Source: Lysinibacillus sphaericus
GTDB taxonomy: Bacteria > Bacillota > Bacilli > Bacillales_A > Planococcaceae
Direction of reading: 5' to 3'
Length of the DNA: 64,000 bases
NCBI RefSeq assembly: GCF_001629735.1
Contig: NZ_CP015224.1
Span: forward strand, 2,604,001 to 2,668,000
Positions within the stretch are counted from its first letter, which is position 1. Every line of letters starts with the position of its first letter. The position numbers and the translations under genes were made by a program. The notes beneath the pieces are model-generated. The model did no database searches. It saw nothing but the letters and a program-made list of their open reading frames with translations, and was not told the origin of the DNA. This document shows positions 2,254-9,812 of this stretch, in pieces.

Positions 2254-3231
2254 TTACTTCATATCATAAAAATGGGTCACTTGGTTACGACCATTTTTTT
2301 TCGATGCATACAAGGCATCATCCGCATTCTTTAGCAAGGTCGTACCAGTATCTTTAGATGTGACGGTTGCCAAACCAATACTTATGGTCACTTGCCCAAC
2401 TGGCCAATGATCTAACGCAACGGTTTTTCTTATTTGCTCCCCTATCTCTTTTGCTGCGGCAATCTCGGTTTCCGGTAAAATCATAACAAATTCCTCACCA
2501 CCATAACGAACGACGGTATCTTCTTTACGCGCTCGTTGTGTTAATAGCTGTGCCAATTGAGCAAGAACATCGTCACCTACTTGATGTCCAAACGTATCAT
2601 TAACCTTTTTAAAGTGGTCAATATCAAGAATGCATAGAGAGAAAGGCTTAGCTGATTCATAATAACTATTGAGCTGTTGTTCAAGTTTTTCTTGGAAGAA
2701 TCTCCTATTTTTTAAACCCGTCAGTTTGTCTGTCTCCGATAATTCAACTAAGGAAGCATTCACGGTTAATAATTTTGCCTGTTGTTGTTCGATTTCTACA
2801 TATATTTGCTCCAAATTGGCTAACGCCTGTTCTTTTTCTTGGTAGGCTGCCTCTAGTAGCTTCTTAGCTGAACGTAACTCTTGTTCATAATCAATACGCT
2901 TTTGCATTTTGACTAAAATACAATCAATTCGCTCTACCGTATCTTCCGTATACAATCTAGCATTCATTAGAAAAGGTATGGCCATACCTTCCTTATGTTT
3001 GAGATGAATAAACAATTCCTCTACTTGCTGTTCTAAATTTATCGCCGGATAAAAATAGGAGTGAAAAATTAATTTATTAGGAGTAGATAGAAGTATTTCT
3101 AAATGTTGTTGTAGCAAATCCACCTGTTCAAAGCCTATCCATTTTAGTAAGGTGTGATTGACCTCGGCAATCAATCCTTCGTGAGTGATGGAAAGAAAAC
3201 CACAGGGCGCATCATTAAGTCGTTGTTCCAT
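2254..3231 (-). CDS. PAS-GGDEF diguanylate cyclase, partner of the RsbQ-like hydrolase
   Basis: 325 residues: a PAS domain (about 1-110) opening with LNDAPCGFLS, a coiled-coil linker (about 115-165), and a GGDEF domain (about 167-320). The active-site loop is GGEEF at 244-248, with DIDHFKKVND upstream for Mg-GTP binding. R235 and D238 form an RxxD inhibitory site five residues before GGEEF, so product inhibition by c-di-GMP is likely. The start overlaps the end of the rsbQ-like gene by 17 bases, with AAAGGATT ahead of the ATG, so translation is probably coupled. The PAS type resembles the sensor of RsbP, which in B. subtilis drives a PP2C phosphatase; here the output is a cyclase. No membrane segment is seen. 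Confidence 0.9.
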   Translation of the reverse strand: MEQRLNDAPCGFLSITHEGLIAEVNHTLLKWIGFEQVDLLQQHLEILLSTPNKLIFHSYFYPAINLEQQVEELFIHLKHKEGMAIPFLMNARLYTEDTVERIDCILVKMQKRIDYEQELRSAKKLLEAAYQEKEQALANLEQIYVEIEQQQAKLLTVNASLVELSETDKLTGLKNRRFFQEKLEQQLNSYYESAKPFSLCILDIDHFKKVNDTFGHQVGDDVLAQLAQLLTQRARKEDTVVRYGGEEFVMILPETEIAAAKEIGEQIRKTVALDHWPVGQVTISIGLATVTSKDTGTTLLKNADDALYASKKNGRNQVTHFYDMK

Positions 3232-4048
3232 TTACAATAATCCTTTCATTATCTTCTCTACAAAAATCCATAATACACTGAATGGTTTCATTTGGGTGAC
3301 TAATGTGAGGGTAATGTCCTTTCGCTTCCATTAAGCTAAAAGTACTGTCTTTAATATGTTTATGTAAATAATCTCCTACACTTATGGGCACAATACTGTC
3401 CTCGGAGCATTGTATAATTAAAACAGGGACTGTTACCTGTGATAATTCATTTCGATGATCCGATAAAAATGTTACCTCGGCAAATTCTCTCGCAATGACA
3501 GGATCTGCAGATTTAAATGTTTGTTTGAGTTCATCCGTTAATGCTGGATTTTCAGGATTGCTCATTGCGATAGGGGCCATATAACTTGCCCAACCCGCAA
3601 AGTTCATTTCCATCATCTCTAATAATTCCGAAATATCACTACGCTCAAATCCACCAATATATTCACCATCATTTAAATAACATGGAGAAGGACCAATCAT
3701 AATTAATTTTTTAAAGTATTCCGGTCTTTTGATGGATGCAAGTAATCCAATCATGGAACTAATAGAATGTCCTACAAAAACACTTTGCTGTAATTTTAAA
3801 GATTCAATAATATCCAATAAATCTTGCATGTAGCCTTCCAAATTTTTATATTTCTCTGATATATAGGCATTTTTATCTGATCTTCCAGAGCCGACATAAT
3901 CGAATAAGATAATTTTATATTTGTCCATAAATGCAGGCGTAATATAACGCCACATGTTTTGATCACAGCCAAAACCATGTCCAAAAATAATCGGTTGATC
4001 TCCTTGTCCAACTATTTTTACATGATTACGAACAACAATATTTTCCAT
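3215..4048 (-). CDS. RsbQ-like alpha/beta hydrolase
   Basis: 277 residues from the ATG at 4048, which has an AAAAGGAG site; the longer open frame back to 4258 lacks one and covers the upstream terminator. The catalytic triad can be read: Ser95 in VGHSIS, Asp217 in QCSEDS, and His245 in EAKGHYPH; GHGFGCD forms the oxyanion region. These contexts match B. subtilis RsbQ (269 residues), which supplies a small ligand to the PAS domain of RsbP in energy-stress activation of sigma-B. Plant strigolactone and karrikin receptors belong to the same fold group. The overlap with a PAS-GGDEF gene implies that here the hydrolase controls c-di-GMP synthesis. The ligand is unknown. Confidence 0.88.
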   Translation of the reverse strand: MENIVVRNHVKIVGQGDQPIIFGHGFGCDQNMWRYITPAFMDKYKIILFDYVGSGRSDKNAYISEKYKNLEGYMQDLLDIIESLKLQQSVFVGHSISSMIGLLASIKRPEYFKKLIMIGPSPCYLNDGEYIGGFERSDISELLEMMEMNFAGWASYMAPIAMSNPENPALTDELKQTFKSADPVIAREFAEVTFLSDHRNELSQVTVPVLIIQCSEDSIVPISVGDYLHKHIKDSTFSLMEAKGHYPHISHPNETIQCIMDFCREDNERIIVNGTTT

Positions 4049-4154
4049 CCAACTAACTCCTTTTAGAAATATATGTAATAGTTTTATTGTGAACTTTGGT
4101 ACGGTAATTATCAAGATTAATTTCCACTTGTAGATTGGACATACTTTGATCATT

Positions 4155-4186
4155 AAAAAGAGCAGCAATGCGTCCGCATACTGCTC
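4155..4186 (-). terminator. Terminator of the CotQ-like gene
   Basis: On the minus strand, GAGCAG and CTGCTC arms with inner ATGCG/CGCAT pairing are followed by TTTTT. It separates the oxidase from the rsbQ-like gene, so rsbQ should have its own promoter in 4050-4150. A TTGATA there is a weak -35 candidate. Confidence 0.8.
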
Positions 4187-4196
4187 ATCATATTGT

Positions 4197-5546
4197 CTAT
4201 AACCATTTTCTAATTGGCGGAATACTTTGCGGAAAGTGAAAAACATTAAATGGATCATATTTTGTTTTCACTTCTCTCAGCCTTCTAAAATTACGACCAT
4301 AATAGGCTGTTGGCCAATCCTGAATAAATCGATCTGGGAAATTGACATAATCACCAGTGGTATATGGAGATAAAGCTCTTCGTATGTTCTCCACCCATTC
4401 GATATTTTTCTTTTCTTCAGCTGGCTTTTTCCAAGAAGTATTGTATTCTTGAGCCATTATTGCATTTCGGTAATAATAGGCTGTGCGAGTTGGCGAAATT
4501 TCACTGATTGCTCCTCTTAAGGATTGTTGCCAAATTGTCGTATTTGGATTAGGGGCAAGCGTTAAAAAATCCTTCATTCTTTTAATGGCCTCAAAAGGAA
4601 GTGGTCTCTCTATAAAGGAACCTGATCTTTTATAGAGAACTGGTTGATTACCACTCGGTAGATCAAAAAATTCTACAGCCTTGATATAGGGTACTTCCTT
4701 TATCCATATATTTGTTGGTGAACCTGCCTTCCTTAGAGGTCGAAGAAGTTTTTTTAACTCAGCTGTAGGACCCACAAATTCCCCTTGTGCTACAACCTCT
4801 CCAACTTCCTTAGTCTTTAACTCAATTTGCGATGTCAAACGCTTATCGGTAAAGGGAGCCCATTTTTGCCAAGTATTAAAAGCAAGCTCAAAATCGTCCC
4901 ATCCCCATGTGATAGAAAAGAGCGAAACTTCACTGATAGCATGAAGCTTGAATGTTAATGAAGTAACAATCCCAAAATTACCGCCGCCGCCACCACAACT
5001 TGCCCAAAAGAGGTCATTATGATTTTGCCTATTTGCTTGGATGATTCTAGCCCCATCCTGTCCACTTGCCGTCACTATCTCTACTTCGAGGAGATTATCA
5101 CAAGTTAGCCCAAAAGGTCGTGACAGCATGCCAATCCCCCCACCAAGAGTTAAGCCAACTACACCAACGCTACTTTCTGTGCCAGCAGGTATCGTTACAC
5201 CATTTTCCCATAATTCTCTGTACACCTTTCCTAAATTGGCTCCAGCATCGATTTTGACCGACATATCTTGCAAATTAATAGCCATGTGATTCATATCACT
5301 TATATCAATGACAAGTCCTTTATTTAATATCGAATAATTTTCATAGCTATGGCGGCCACTGCGAACCCTGAAAGGTTCATTGTTTTCTCTTGCCCATCTC
5401 AAGGCATTCACCACATCTTTTGTTCTTTGACAAAATACAATTATTCTCGGATATTTTGGATTACTTAAATTATTATTCGTCCTGGCTTGTTCATAATTCG
5501 GATCTTCAGGAGTAACGATTCTGCCTGTAAGTTTCGCTTTTTTCAC
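4197..5546 (-). CDS. FAD-linked oxidoreductase, BBE type, CotQ/YvdP-like spore coat enzyme
   Basis: The FAD-binding PCMH domain covers about residues 35-210 and the C-terminal berberine-bridge segment follows. From the ATG at 5567 the protein would have 456 residues, and His73 in SGRHSYENYS is the residue that usually carries 8-alpha-histidyl FAD. The second attachment cysteine of bicovalent relatives (GTCP context) is Glu here (GTESSVG). I place the start at the GTG at 5546 (449 residues): it has AGGAAAGGGG six bases upstream, and the sigma-K-type promoter would begin the mRNA downstream of the ATG at 5567. CotQ is a B. subtilis coat protein of this family and about this length. The substrate is unknown. 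Confidence 0.82.
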   Translation of the reverse strand: MKKAKLTGRIVTPEDPNYEQARTNNNLSNPKYPRIIVFCQRTKDVVNALRWARENNEPFRVRSGRHSYENYSILNKGLVIDISDMNHMAINLQDMSVKIDAGANLGKVYRELWENGVTIPAGTESSVGVVGLTLGGGIGMLSRPFGLTCDNLLEVEIVTASGQDGARIIQANRQNHNDLFWASCGGGGGNFGIVTSLTFKLHAISEVSLFSITWGWDDFELAFNTWQKWAPFTDKRLTSQIELKTKEVGEVVAQGEFVGPTAELKKLLRPLRKAGSPTNIWIKEVPYIKAVEFFDLPSGNQPVLYKRSGSFIERPLPFEAIKRMKDFLTLAPNPNTTIWQQSLRGAISEISPTRTAYYYRNAIMAQEYNTSWKKPAEEKKNIEWVENIRRALSPYTTGDYVNFPDRFIQDWPTAYYGRNFRRLREVKTKYDPFNVFHFPQSIPPIRKWL

Positions 5547-5570
5547 CTCAAACCCCTTTCCTATCATACC

Positions 5571-5597
5571 TAACTTATGTCATATCCTATGCTAGGT
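5571..5597 (-). promoter_or_regulatory. Sigma-K-type promoter of the CotQ-like gene
   Basis: The minus strand has AC at 5597-5596, 16 bases, then CATAAGTTA at 5579-5571, matching AC-N16-CATANNNTA, the mother-cell sigma-K consensus. Transcription would begin near 5564. A second CATANNNTA match (CATAGGATA) overlaps it upstream but lacks AC at the right distance. Confidence 0.65.
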
Positions 5598-5711
5598 ATC
5601 ATAGGGAAAGAATTTGAAGTTTTAAGCATTTTACTTTTCTCTTATAAAAATACTCATTTCTTCATTTGAATCATATGATGCAGTAATGAACTATCATGTA
5701 GGAGGTGTTCT

Positions 5712-7121
5712 ATGATTATTCATGTAGTAAGTGCTGGGGAAACGCTATGGCATATTGCCAATCGTTATGGGGTATCTGTGCAATCTATTACCTTATTAAA
5801 TGCGTTAGCCACACCAGATCAATTAGCCATCGGACAATCACTTGTTATACCGTCACCCTATACCACCTATACCGTTAAAAGCGGAGATACATTATGGGCA
5901 ATTGCACAGCAATTTGGCGTTCCGCTAGAAGCCATCATTGCAGACAATCATCTAACTAACCCTGATATGTTAACCCCTGGCACTAAATTAATTATTCCAC
6001 CAATCATTCATATTGTGGAGCCTGGAGAAACTTTATGGCAAATAGCTCAAGAGTATGAGACGACCATCCAAGCAATTGTTGCTGTAAATCATATAAACAA
6101 CCCTAATATGATTTATGTCGGCGCTCAGTTAATCATCCCTAGAAAATTACCCCTCATTGAAGTAAATGCTTATTCTTACCAACCATCTGAGGAAGCGATT
6201 GATTCCATTAATGCCGTTGGTCATCTACTTACTTATTTTAGTCCTTTTGCATATATGATGAAGGAAGACGGTACACTACAGCCTATAAACGACGAAAAAA
6301 TGATAGCAGCTGCACAGGCTAAAAACATCATTCCTATGCTAACGCTCACTAATTTTACTTCTACAGAGGGTGGCTCTAATTTAGCACATGTTGTCTTGTC
6401 CAATGAAGATTTACGTGTCAAGGTGATGAATAATGTTTTGCAGGTAATGCAAGAGAAGGGCTATCAAGTTTTGAATATTGATTTTGAAAATGTTTTACCA
6501 GCAGATCGAGAAAATTACAATGCGTTTATACAATTAGCTGCGGATACGCTTCATCCAATGGGCTATCTCGTGTCAACTGCACTCGCACCTAAAACAAGTG
6601 CAACGCAAGCTGGAACGTTATATGAAGCACACGATTACGCGGCGCACGGTCGAATAGCAGATTTTGTGGTTTTGATGACCTATGAATGGGGGTATCGCTT
6701 TGGTTCTCCTCAAGCGATTTCCCCTATTAATGAGATGAGAAGAGTTGTGGAATATGCACTGACAGAAATACCAGCAAATAAAATTTTATTAGGCTTTGAG
6801 CTATATGCTCGTGATTGGCTATTACCCCATGTCAAAGGCCAAGAAGCCGAAACTTTTAGTCCACAGCAGGCTCTTAATCGAGCCATTGAATATGGCGCTA
6901 CTATCCAATTTGACCAAACAGCACAATCCCCATTCTATCGTTATGTCGATGAACAAGGGAGAAATCACGAGGTATGGTTTGAAGATGCAAGAAGTGCCCA
7001 AGCTAAATTTGACTTAGTCAAACAATATAACCTTCGAGGAATTAGTTATTGGGCTTTAGGTTTCCCATTTCCACAAAATTGGGTACTTTTAAATGAAAAT
7101 TTTTCTATAATAAAACCTTAG
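5712..7121 (+). CDS. LysM-GH18 spore cortex/peptidoglycan hydrolase, YaaH/SleL type
   Basis: 469 residues. Three LysM repeats (about 2-48, 52-97 and 99-144), each with an SGETLW- or PGETLW-like motif, are followed by a GH18 barrel (about 148-465). The catalytic motif is LNIDFENV with acid Glu259. SleL/YaaH enzymes of this build are spore N-acetylglucosaminidases that act on cortex fragments during germination; they usually carry two LysM repeats, so three is slightly unusual. There is no signal peptide, as is usual for proteins placed on the spore from the mother cell. The start has AGGAGGTG upstream. A CATATGAT box near 5672-5679 could be a sigma-E-type -10 but is weak. Confidence 0.88.
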   Translation: MIIHVVSAGETLWHIANRYGVSVQSITLLNALATPDQLAIGQSLVIPSPYTTYTVKSGDTLWAIAQQFGVPLEAIIADNHLTNPDMLTPGTKLIIPPIIHIVEPGETLWQIAQEYETTIQAIVAVNHINNPNMIYVGAQLIIPRKLPLIEVNAYSYQPSEEAIDSINAVGHLLTYFSPFAYMMKEDGTLQPINDEKMIAAAQAKNIIPMLTLTNFTSTEGGSNLAHVVLSNEDLRVKVMNNVLQVMQEKGYQVLNIDFENVLPADRENYNAFIQLAADTLHPMGYLVSTALAPKTSATQAGTLYEAHDYAAHGRIADFVVLMTYEWGYRFGSPQAISPINEMRRVVEYALTEIPANKILLGFELYARDWLLPHVKGQEAETFSPQQALNRAIEYGATIQFDQTAQSPFYRYVDEQGRNHEVWFEDARSAQAKFDLVKQYNLRGISYWALGFPFPQNWVLLNENFSIIKP

Positions 7122-7658: not shown

Positions 7659-9812
7659 TTACACACTATAATTTTCTTTATATTGAAGCTGCATCAAGAC
7701 GTCATTTACATGGTGGTGCAAATCATGAAAGGTTTCCGAAATTTGCTGAGGTGAAATCGGTTTACTAAATAAGTAACCTTGAATATAATCACATCCACCT
7801 TCCATCAGAAACGAAAGCTGTTCAACCTCTTCAATCCCCTCCGCCACAACCTTCAAGCGTAAATGCTTGGCCATCGAAATAATCATCGATACAAGTGCTT
7901 CATCATTTGGATTATGTGGAACATTTCTAATAAAAGTGCGGTCAATTTTTAGACAATCTATTGGAAAATCCTTTAAATAGGATAAAGATGAATATCCTGT
8001 TCCAAAATCATCTACTGCTATTTGAATGCCAAGCGCCTTTAATTCATGCAGTAGCTGTGTCATTTGATCAATATTCATTGTCATACTTTCTGTAATTTCT
8101 AATTGTAGATAATGAGCATCCAATTTTGAACGTTGTAATATTCCAGCCACCATTTCAACTAAATCCTGTTGAAATAATTGTCCAAGTGAAAGATTAACAG
8201 CTACTTTGATTGGAGGTAACCCTTGTTCCTCCCATTGTTTCGCTTGCTGACAGGCTGTTTCTAATATCCATTTTCCAAGAGGAATAATAAGACCACATTC
8301 TTCAGCAATCGGAATAAATAATTCAGGTGACACAAACCCCCGACTTGGATGTCGCCAGCGTACTAATGCTTCAACAGATTCAATCGCACCACTCTTTAAA
8401 TTTACCTGTGGTTGATAATCTAAATAAAATTCATTATTGGCTAATGCATTATGTAAATCTTGCTCAAGCAATATACGATCTGCAATTCCTTTAGACATGT
8501 ATGGCTTATAAAAAAGAAATCTTTGAGGTATTTGTCTAGACTCTCGCATGGCTAGTTGGGCATGCATCAATAGCTCTTCCCCCGACCACTTTTCCTCTTG
8601 TAGGGCAATTCCCATATTCAAATTGCCATTTAACGAAAATAATTGTACCTGTAAAGGTTTTTTCATGGCACTTTTTAGATTTAAGCAAAATTGTAATAGC
8701 TCCTCAACAGTCTTTACATGGTGAATGTAAATGACAAATTGGCCCTCTTGTAGTTTGGTCGCAAAATAGTGCGGTGGTAAAATCGTTTGAATACGGTCTG
8801 CCACTAACTTCATCATTTTATTAGAATGACTGATTCCTATGGAAGAACGAATGGCTGCAAACCGATCAATTTCTATCGCAATGATTGCCTTTTGAAGTTC
8901 GTTTTCATGTAATTTTTCCTTTAATGTTTTAAGTAATAAATGCTCATTTGGCAATAGTGTAATATCATCATGATAGGCTTGAAATTGAAGCTCCCGTTGT
9001 GATTGTTCAAGATCTTTTTTGATTTTCAACAGTTGTTGAAACGGCTTTTCAACCGATGTATAATAAATTGCCTTTAAGAAAAAGTAAAATGCTAAAAATT
9101 GATAAATAAGGGCGGAGAAATCCCAAATAGCATGTGTATCTTGGCTTATTATAAAAAGCGTATCACTTACAATAAGCGATATAGCCGCACTGATGAGCCA
9201 CATGGAACGCTTTGGCATTTTCTTAAAAAACCTACTAATAATATTTATTGTGATCAGTTGAAGAACAATAGAAAATAGGTGTACCATATTATCAATAGGA
9301 TCTATCCATTGTACTGGCAAAAATTTTGGTGAAATAAAAACTAGGAGAATACTTGCTATAACAAAAAGTAGAGAACCGCTATAACTAAGGATTCTATACT
9401 TTATTGTTAATTGTTTTTTAGGATATAAAATAATGAATAAAAAACCAAGTGATAAGTAAAAACGTATTAAGATATGTAAAGTGCCATCTATATAGTCCCA
9501 TTTAATATAATGGTTATGGCTAAAAAATAAACTTACTAATTCAAGTAATGCTAAAATAAAAAACACATTTCCTATGTATAAAGTCTGATTGGATAGTAAG
9601 TGAGAAAATACTAAATAGGATTGTATGGCTATTGCCATTGTAAACACAATAATCAATACTTGTATAATCAATTTTAAATTTGTATAAATTTCACCTTGAA
9701 AAACATCATATACTTGATTGCTAAAAATTAATAATGGTATGACCAGTAGTAATGGTAATACCATGTACCAAACCTCTTTTTTATCGATCTGATTAAACCA
9801 TTTGCCCAACAC
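7659..9812 (-). CDS. Membrane c-di-GMP phosphodiesterase with degenerate GGDEF and intact EAL
   Basis: 717 residues: an N-terminal membrane sensor of about eight hydrophobic segments (about 15-260, MASE3-like in look), a short coiled coil, a GGDEF-like domain (about 285-440) and an EAL domain (about 455-710). In the GGDEF domain the catalytic loop is replaced by LQEGQF, so cyclase activity is not expected. The EAL domain has its catalytic and metal-binding signatures: VEALVRW, the NLS segment, EITES, DDFGTGYSS, CLKIDR, VAEGIE and QGYLFSKP. It should hydrolyse c-di-GMP to pGpG at the membrane. It could oppose the PAS-GGDEF cyclase encoded about 4.4 kb away. Confidence 0.88.
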   Translation of the reverse strand: MLGKWFNQIDKKEVWYMVLPLLLVIPLLIFSNQVYDVFQGEIYTNLKLIIQVLIIVFTMAIAIQSYLVFSHLLSNQTLYIGNVFFILALLELVSLFFSHNHYIKWDYIDGTLHILIRFYLSLGFLFIILYPKKQLTIKYRILSYSGSLLFVIASILLVFISPKFLPVQWIDPIDNMVHLFSIVLQLITINIISRFFKKMPKRSMWLISAAISLIVSDTLFIISQDTHAIWDFSALIYQFLAFYFFLKAIYYTSVEKPFQQLLKIKKDLEQSQRELQFQAYHDDITLLPNEHLLLKTLKEKLHENELQKAIIAIEIDRFAAIRSSIGISHSNKMMKLVADRIQTILPPHYFATKLQEGQFVIYIHHVKTVEELLQFCLNLKSAMKKPLQVQLFSLNGNLNMGIALQEEKWSGEELLMHAQLAMRESRQIPQRFLFYKPYMSKGIADRILLEQDLHNALANNEFYLDYQPQVNLKSGAIESVEALVRWRHPSRGFVSPELFIPIAEECGLIIPLGKWILETACQQAKQWEEQGLPPIKVAVNLSLGQLFQQDLVEMVAGILQRSKLDAHYLQLEITESMTMNIDQMTQLLHELKALGIQIAVDDFGTGYSSLSYLKDFPIDCLKIDRTFIRNVPHNPNDEALVSMIISMAKHLRLKVVAEGIEEVEQLSFLMEGGCDYIQGYLFSKPISPQQISETFHDLHHHVNDVLMQLQYKENYSV

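What the first reader, a model, noticed from the sequence alone, without database searches (positions are those of the whole stretch)
2254..4048. RsbQ-type hydrolase overlapping a PAS-diguanylate cyclase: a hydrolase-gated c-di-GMP switch
An alpha/beta hydrolase with the full RsbQ triad (Ser95, Asp217, His245) overlaps by 17 bases a PAS protein whose output is GGDEF, not the PP2C phosphatase of B. subtilis RsbP. The cyclase keeps GGEEF and an RxxD feedback site. Pairings of RsbQ-like hydrolases with PAS proteins of varied output have been noted in comparative studies, but the ligand and the c-di-GMP branch remain little described. A strigolactone-receptor-like enzyme would make a signal for second-messenger synthesis.
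Basis: partly seen in the sequence, partly recalled or inferred. Interest (0 to 1): 0.72.

Follow-up and report, generated by a model that had tools for sequence, protein, structure and literature searches.

The report
RsbQ hydrolase paired with c-di-GMP cyclase
A bacterial enzyme related to plant hormone receptors sits in front of, and is kept or lost together with, an enzyme built to make the signalling molecule c-di-GMP; the pairing belongs to a sensor class described in 2011, but how its c-di-GMP branch works is still untested.

Summary
An RsbQ-type hydrolase (3215-4048, -) with an intact Ser95/Asp217/His245 triad overlaps by 17 bp a PAS, long-helix, GGEEF cyclase (2254-3231, -) with an RKED inhibitory site. 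The genus is Lysinibacillus. The kind is already published: PMC3183031 (2011) listed 45 RsbQ-PAS pairs with phosphatase, histidine-kinase or diguanylate-cyclase outputs. So this is a new member of a known kind.

I add evidence that the two genes work as one unit. Of 32 Lysinibacillus genomes, 14 keep both, one has both decaying, 17 have neither at my thresholds. Two of 12 module-free sites hold scraps of the cyclase, one also of the hydrolase. In 398 class genomes 47 of 52 hydrolase copies have the PAS beside them. In 3 of 275 genomes of one Halomonadaceae family search, hydrolase and PAS are fused. The 17-bp overlap is absent in the nearest relative.

Most likely the hydrolase binds the PAS and lets the cyclase make c-di-GMP. 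Ligand, direction of control and output remain untested. No second RsbP-type PAS was found in this genome.

The parts
3215..4048 (-). RsbQ-type alpha/beta hydrolase, 277 aa; ribosome-binding-like AAAGGAG before the ATG
   Evidence: Pfam Abhydrolase_1; RsbQ 1wom E 1.9e-100
3764..3766 (-). catalytic Ser95 codon (GHSIS)
   Evidence: conserved in 115 of 116 aligned rows, the other (L084) misread by me and intact on its right strand
3398..3400 (-). catalytic Asp217 codon
   Evidence: as for Ser95
3314..3316 (-). catalytic His245 codon
3215..3231 (-). 17-bp overlap of the two genes; not conserved in the nearest relative
2254..3231 (-). PAS - signalling helix - GGDEF diguanylate cyclase, 325 aa
2899..3231 (-). 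RsbP-type PAS domain (residues 1-111) with PCG motif and conserved F-alpha region (residues 50-67 helical in the model)
   Evidence: Pfam PAS weak
2737..2898 (-). predicted single long helix 112-165 (candidate parallel coiled coil)
   Evidence: AlphaFold2 model
2281..2736 (-). GGDEF catalytic domain (residues 166-317)
   Evidence: Pfam; Foldseek
2518..2529 (-). RKED, candidate inhibitory (I-) site RxxD
2488..2502 (-). GGEEF active-site motif
4155..4186 (-). hairpin (4160-4186) plus TTTTT (4155-4159), terminator-like, between the upstream oxidase gene and the hydrolase; the simple scan did not list it
   Evidence: read; fold of 4145-4196 -15.8 kcal/mol, z -3.1

Best explanation
This is a two-gene RsbQ-PAS sensor module with a diguanylate-cyclase output. 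The soluble hydrolase binds (and probably hydrolyses) an unknown small molecule and directly contacts the PAS domain of a cyclase dimer. The contact is passed through the long helix 112-165 and aligns the two GGEEF domains, so that c-di-GMP is made; product bound at RKED limits the reaction. Steps shown here: the domain anatomy, intact catalytic residues in both proteins, and inheritance, decay and occasional fusion of hydrolase and PAS as one unit. Steps inferred from B. subtilis RsbQP (PMC3183031): need for the triad, direct hydrolase-PAS contact, activation. Unknown: ligand, sign of control, downstream target.
For: Family: 1wom RsbQ E 1.9e-100. Genus co-occurrence: hydrolase in 15 of 32 genomes (E 1e-50), PAS in the same 15 of 32 (E 1e-6); in G028 both are broken by stops or frame breaks. 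Of 12 module-free genomes whose site was fetched (L191-L202), two hold scraps between oxidase and MutT: G011 of both genes, G014 of the cyclase. Class: 47 of 52 hydrolase copies and 47 of 49 PAS copies adjacent; the two unpaired PAS copies lie beside hydrolase remnants. Fusion: one ORF in Modicisalibacter luteus and two more genomes, 3 of 275 searched. Catalytic conservation: triad in 116 of 116 hydrolases once L084 is read on its right strand; GGEEF in 62 of 63 cyclase rows, the other a gap. Purifying selection: dN/dS 0.07-0.23 for the hydrolase in 9 Lysinibacillus pairs. Class residues of RsbP-PAS (definition). Partner-driven or PAS-driven cyclases of similar layout exist: SiaD-SiaC 7e6g and LOV-activated 8c05 among the Foldseek hits.
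Against: No biochemical data. F55, whose alanine change breaks RsbQ binding in B. subtilis (PMC3183031), is Ile55 here (Ile in 24 and Phe in 27 of 63 cyclase rows), so contact chemistry may differ. The model of the natural fusion folds both domains well but not their docking (pTM 0.73, residues 272-277 of the linker below pLDDT 50). Adjacent genes can be deleted together for trivial reasons; only G028 shows decay of both by small lesions, and its GGDEF part is still open. Ten of 12 module-free sites showed no scrap, and five further module-free genomes were not examined. Five of 52 class hydrolases pair with a STAS gene instead of a PAS. PAS dN/dS is noisy (0.09-0.66).
Confidence: 0.75

Rival explanations
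1. The hydrolase makes or destroys a diffusible ligand that the PAS binds, without stable protein contact; the PAS is the true sensor (Model 1 of Nadezhdin et al. in a weak form).
For: Intact triad in 116 of 116 hydrolases; PAS fold present; co-inheritance fits equally well.
Against: Natural fusions of hydrolase and PAS in 3 genomes and the B. subtilis two-hybrid and pull-down data (PMC3183031) favour contact.
Confidence: 0.2
2. The hydrolase restrains the cyclase, and ligand or hydrolysis relieves it (negative control).
For: I found no test of the sign of control for a cyclase-type pair; in G028 the sensor half is broken while the GGDEF half remains open with RVGN in place of RxxD.
Against: RsbQ is an activator in B. 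subtilis (PMC3183031).
Confidence: 0.15
3. Neighbours without functional link, kept together by short distance only.
For: The genes are adjacent, so single deletions remove both.
Against: Adjacency recurs in Bacillota, Cyanobacteriota, Bacteroidota, Acidobacteriota, Gemmatimonadota and Pseudomonadota with different outputs; 47 of 52 and 47 of 49 copies paired; fusions.
Confidence: 0.03
4. A three-gene unit in which the upstream FAD/berberine-type oxidase makes the ligand precursor.
For: Oxidase lies upstream on the same strand and beside the module in 12 of the 15 module-bearing Lysinibacillus genomes, G013 being unreadable at a contig end.
Against: Oxidase occurs in 25 of 32 genomes, 12 of them without the module, and has no match at E 1e-150 in G005 and G016, which have the module; not found beside the module in the non-Lysinibacillus loci scanned; a terminator-like hairpin separates them.
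Confidence: 0.04

Closest known systems
RsbQ-PAS modules with diguanylate cyclase output (Nadezhdin, Brody, Price 2011, PMC3183031)
   Same: Gene order, N-terminal RsbP-type PAS, predicted helical linker, GGDEF output, RsbQ upstream
   Different: The word Lysinibacillus is not in that paper's main text, but its Figure 2, which names the 45 proteins, is not held, so this genus or an older name may be there; otherwise the same kind
B. subtilis RsbQ-RsbP (energy-stress activation of sigma-B)
   Same: Hydrolase (1wom) with triad and cavity residues; PAS with hPhG region, E72, P86; two-gene operon
   Different: Output is a PPM phosphatase there, GGEEF cyclase here; F55 is Ile55 here
KAI2 / D14 karrikin and strigolactone receptors
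   Same: Same alpha/beta hydrolase branch; best KAI2 chain E 8.2e-67
   Different: Plant proteins acting through F-box partners (recalled); no evidence for a butenolide ligand here
SiaC-SiaD (7e6g; PMC8457831 seen in search listing only) and RsbT-controlled cyclase of Moorella (passage in PMC12143880)
   Same: Diguanylate cyclase controlled by a separately encoded binding protein
   Different: Activator proteins are not hydrolases (recalled)
LOV-activated diguanylate cyclase 8c05
   Same: PAS-family domain, helix, GGDEF; top Foldseek hit
   Different: Light/flavin input rather than a hydrolase partner

Membership tests
RsbQ-PAS module (PMC3183031) | RsbQ homologue encoded immediately upstream | tested here: met
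[quoted passage not shown]
   residues 1-111
RsbQ-PAS module (PMC3183031) | Nine class residues C10, L13, L48, Q53, F55, C56, Y59, E72, P86 | tested here: met
   Six of nine identical (C10, L13, L48, Y59, E72, P86); K53, I55, F56 differ from B. subtilis but fit basic/hydrophobic/aromatic consensus classes (which class belongs to which position is my inference). Numbering is by gap-free position: I did not align RsbP itself. Window residues and counts
RsbQ-PAS module (PMC3183031) | No DIT motif at the end of the PAS | tested here: met
   PAS ends KMQKRIDYEQEL (read by eye)
RsbQ-PAS module (PMC3183031) | Coiled coil of at least 21 residues to the output domain (36 of 45 in that paper) | tested here: inconclusive
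   one 54-residue helix predicted, 112-165; coiled coil or dimer not tested
RsbQ-PAS module (PMC3183031) | Direct hydrolase-PAS contact needed for signalling | not testable with these tools
   fusion genes are indirect support; docking unresolved
RsbQ hydrolase | Catalytic triad and cavity residues F27, V97, F136, F196 (B. subtilis numbers) | tested here: met
   S95, D217, H245; F26, I96 (conservative), F134, F194 (numbers)
Diguanylate cyclase | GG[DE]EF with metal-binding Asp and RxxD I-site | tested here: met
   GGEEF 244-248, DID 203-205, RKED 235-238
Diguanylate cyclase | Makes c-di-GMP from GTP | not testable with these tools
   needs enzyme assay
RsbP (sigma-B energy-stress phosphatase) | PPM phosphatase output | tested here: not met
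   GGDEF output; the genome's only RsbP-type PAS match at E 1e-6 is this one. Of its four SpoIIE-type hits two were read: a 335-aa RsbU-like and a receiver-type protein

The most novel reading that the evidence does not exclude
Hydrolase plus RsbP-type PAS is a self-contained, transferable receptor unit that evolution plugs into cyclases and kinases, that is fused into one polypeptide in some Halomonadaceae and left without any output domain in some Paenibacillaceae; in Lysinibacillus it redirects the signal that drives sigma-B in B. subtilis into c-di-GMP, while sigma-B there is left to RsbU.
Probability: 0.4. Interest if true: 0.6.

Novelty: new member of a known kind. Interest (0 to 1): 0.38.

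Why it matters
The ligand and mechanism of RsbQ, a bacterial relative of plant hormone receptors, were reported unknown in 2011 (PMC3183031) and I found no later answer. A cyclase output would give a direct enzymatic readout (c-di-GMP from GTP), and the natural fusions and output-free PAS proteins found here are ready-made material for binding and structural work.

Tried and rejected
Three-gene unit with the upstream oxidase: rejected. Chance adjacency: rejected. Promoter scan: uninformative, 16 promoter-like sites against 15.6 expected. Rfam on the window: no match at gathering thresholds. Plasmid DNA search: three Vibrio records, 5% of the query each. The first alignment for that job (A1) put PAS rows on the hydrolase and was discarded.

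Corrections of my own steps: one search read minus-strand loci in the wrong direction and is superseded. L084 was read on the wrong strand; one search shows its triad region intact and a kinase downstream, and that it was the only row missing S95 and D217. One search also assigned L107 and L127 (kinase) and L111 (PAS upstream of the hydrolase). Dropped before the counts: L019 (decayed) and 4 duplicate loci; a length filter of 200 aa removed none. The tree left out L078, L084, L107, L111 and L127. The tree's place for B. subtilis RsbQ is on a long branch and unsure.

Full report
Observation. The window carries, on the minus strand, a 277-aa hydrolase gene (3215-4048) overlapping by 17 bases a 325-aa PAS-GGDEF gene (2254-3231). 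S95, D217 and H245 stand where stated; GGEEF is at 244-248 and RKED at 235-238. Pfam finds Abhydrolase_1, a strong GGDEF (2.5e-47) and a borderline PAS (22.7 bits, cut-off 22.6). An AlphaFold2 model of the cyclase (24 sequences, mean pLDDT 90.2, pTM 0.56) shows PAS-type strands, one helix 112-165 and a GGDEF fold; the best Foldseek hit is a LOV-activated cyclase, 8c05. The closest solved hydrolase is B. subtilis RsbQ, 1wom (E 1.9e-100), then 3qvm (1.1e-70) and the plant receptor KAI2 (8.2e-67).

Organism. The window lies in a 4.69-Mb genome. Two 'same genus' genomes (G003, G002) have contigs of the same length, with the same module sequences, as records of Lysinibacillus capsici and L. boronitolerans, so the genus is Lysinibacillus.

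Prior knowledge. PMC3183031 (read: abstract, sections 5, 6, 11 part 1 of 2, 19, and passages) reports 45 adjacent RsbQ/RsbP-PAS pairs with phosphatase, histidine-kinase or diguanylate-cyclase output. Triad residues of RsbQ and F55 and Y59 of the PAS matter in B. subtilis; the signal is unknown, and only for B. subtilis was the target known. PMC12143880 (passages only) cites the cyclase branch again and proposes a common dimeric-linker architecture. Searches for RsbQ with GGDEF; RsbQ, RsbP, PAS domain and hydrolase; RsbQ with karrikin, strigolactone and bacteria; RsbQ alone since 2012; and RsbP, hydrolase, PAS and diguanylate cyclase since 2012 showed no functional study of a cyclase-type pair among the titles and abstract starts listed (40 of 117 listed). 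That is a statement about this open-access library only.

Co-inheritance in the genus. At E 1e-50 the hydrolase is in 15 of 32 Lysinibacillus genomes; the PAS region at E 1e-6 is in the same 15 of 32. Fourteen are intact with a GGEEF gene downstream. In G028 both genes are broken by stops and frame breaks while the GGDEF part stays open (188 aa). The gene order around the module (LysM glycosidase, oxidase, hydrolase, cyclase, often MutT, SpoU) is widely shared. I fetched the site in 12 of the 17 module-free genomes, those with the oxidase (L191-L202). G011 keeps short scraps of both genes and G014 a scrap of the cyclase between oxidase and MutT; the other ten show none. So in at least two the module was once present. 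None of the 32 keeps one intact gene without the other at these thresholds.

Co-inheritance in the class. In 398 genomes drawn evenly from the class, 52 hydrolase copies (48 genomes, E 1e-40; up to six candidates scored per genome) and 49 PAS copies (46 genomes, E 1e-6) were found. Forty-seven are adjacent pairs on the same strand. The five unpaired hydrolases are followed by a STAS-type gene instead (Pfam run on two; the others by sequence likeness). The two unpaired PAS copies sit beside hydrolase remnants (G395, G253).

Outputs elsewhere. For 80 genome-contig loci (the best 80 of at least 587 relatives), together give: cyclase 28, histidine kinase 44, PAS without output 4 (L085, L104, L112, L140), fused 1 (L118), PAS upstream of the hydrolase 1 (L111), a probable kinase with a frame break 1 (L075), and 1 cut off by the contig end (L078). 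In one search a PAS like the window's was recognised in 67 of 68 cyclase and 39 of 41 kinase genes. On a tree of 122 hydrolases the window sits in an all-cyclase Bacillota clade, away from B. subtilis RsbQ (long branch, place unsure); output labels need at least 10 changes against a shuffled mean of 48.7. Outputs are therefore mostly inherited but have been exchanged several times.

Fusion. In Modicisalibacter luteus one 390-aa frame holds hydrolase and RsbP-type PAS without any output domain. Of 275 genomes of its family searched, 52 have a relative at E 1e-30, and two further genomes (G574, 87%; G615, 66%) carry the same fusion. An AlphaFold2 model folds both domains (mean pLDDT 92.1), but pTM 0.73 and linker residues below pLDDT 50 leave the docking open. 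None of the passages found with 'fusion' and 'fused' in PMC3183031 concerns such a gene fusion.

Conservation and selection. In 116 aligned hydrolases the triad is complete in 115, and in L084 too once read on its right strand. In 63 cyclase rows GGEEF is present in 62 (one gap), RxxD's R in 55 and D in 58. dN/dS in nine Lysinibacillus pairs is 0.07-0.23 for the hydrolase, 0.09-0.66 for the PAS (the extreme from a pair with dS 0.05), 0.08-0.32 for GGDEF, and 0.02-0.07 for the neighbour SpoU. Both genes are under purifying selection, less strict than that neighbour.

Not part of it. The upstream oxidase is in 25 of 32 genomes, 12 of them without the module, and has no match in two with it; a terminator-like hairpin with TTTTT lies between it and the hydrolase. 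The 17-bp overlap comes from a longer hydrolase end in this genome than in G006.

Setting. The genome has 20 GGDEF matches, 2 PilZ matches and one c-di-GMP-I riboswitch about 70 bases before a chemotaxis-receptor-like gene (the gene name is my reading, not a scan). Four SpoIIE-type matches exist: a 335-aa RsbU-like protein near an RsbW-like gene and a receiver-type protein were read (names by reading); a 794-aa frame and a weak hit were not. The only RsbP-type PAS match in the genome at E 1e-6 is the one at this locus. So the cyclase is the hydrolase's only visible partner.

Mechanism. Most likely the hydrolase, on binding or cleaving its ligand, contacts the PAS of the cyclase dimer, and the helix 112-165 transmits the change to the GGEEF domains, with RKED as product brake. 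Anatomy and co-inheritance are shown here; contact and need for the triad are carried over from B. subtilis; direction, ligand and target are inference or unknown. Ile55 in place of the F55 that matters in B. subtilis is a real difference, though Ile is common among cyclase-type rows (24 of 63).

Verdict. Ordinary in kind (a new member of a class described in 2011), well supported as a functional unit, and a convenient system for the open question of what RsbQ senses.

Noticed in passing
L177:2346-3203, L181:8981-9868; also L176, L178, L179: In five copies from genomes of the window's family an RsbQ-like hydrolase is followed, 73-123 bp after the matched end, by a 284-295-aa protein with a C-terminal STAS domain (Pfam run on two; RsbR/stressosome-like by reading) and no PAS. 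The word STAS does not occur in the main text of PMC3183031.
   Followed up: partly
L118:4983-6155 (+), L209:1501-2667, L210:1501-2661: Natural fusion of RsbQ-type hydrolase and RsbP-type PAS in one frame without output domain, in 3 of 275 genomes of the family.
   Followed up: yes
L104:5815-6306, L140:5843-6301, L112:5815-6186, L171:2166-2684, L173:2236-2667, L174:2394-2933, L175:2641-3165, L085 from 5833: Paenibacillaceae-type pairs in which the PAS gene (about 120-180 aa) has no output domain; Pfam found no family in L175. Adaptor or partner for another protein?
   Followed up: partly
L180 (G253), minus strand, ORF of 292 aa: A deletion has joined the N-terminal half of the hydrolase to the end of the PAS and the GGDEF domain in one open frame.
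   Followed up: no
L182 (G028) 3494-5223, minus strand: Decaying copy: hydrolase and PAS hold stops and frame breaks, GGDEF part still open, with RVGN in place of RxxD.
   Followed up: partly
window 7659-9812 (-): MASE3-GGDEF-EAL protein 3.6 kb upstream of the hydrolase gene; EALVRW intact, GGDEF motif degenerate (EGQF by reading), so a likely c-di-GMP phosphodiesterase near the cyclase.
   Followed up: no
L238 (G000:C1:3210588-3210673, -): The genome's only c-di-GMP-I riboswitch match lies before a chemotaxis-receptor-like gene: a possible readout.
   Followed up: partly
L222:2-2301 and other Halomonadaceae loci L210-L237: RsbQ-like hydrolase directly downstream of a GGDEF-EAL gene (order reversed) in L222; a GGDEF stretch lies within 24 of 30 fetched loci, only L222 read in full.
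   Followed up: no
L111:3973-4305 and 4986-5792: Planktothrix locus with the RsbP-type PAS upstream of the hydrolase rather than downstream.
   Followed up: no
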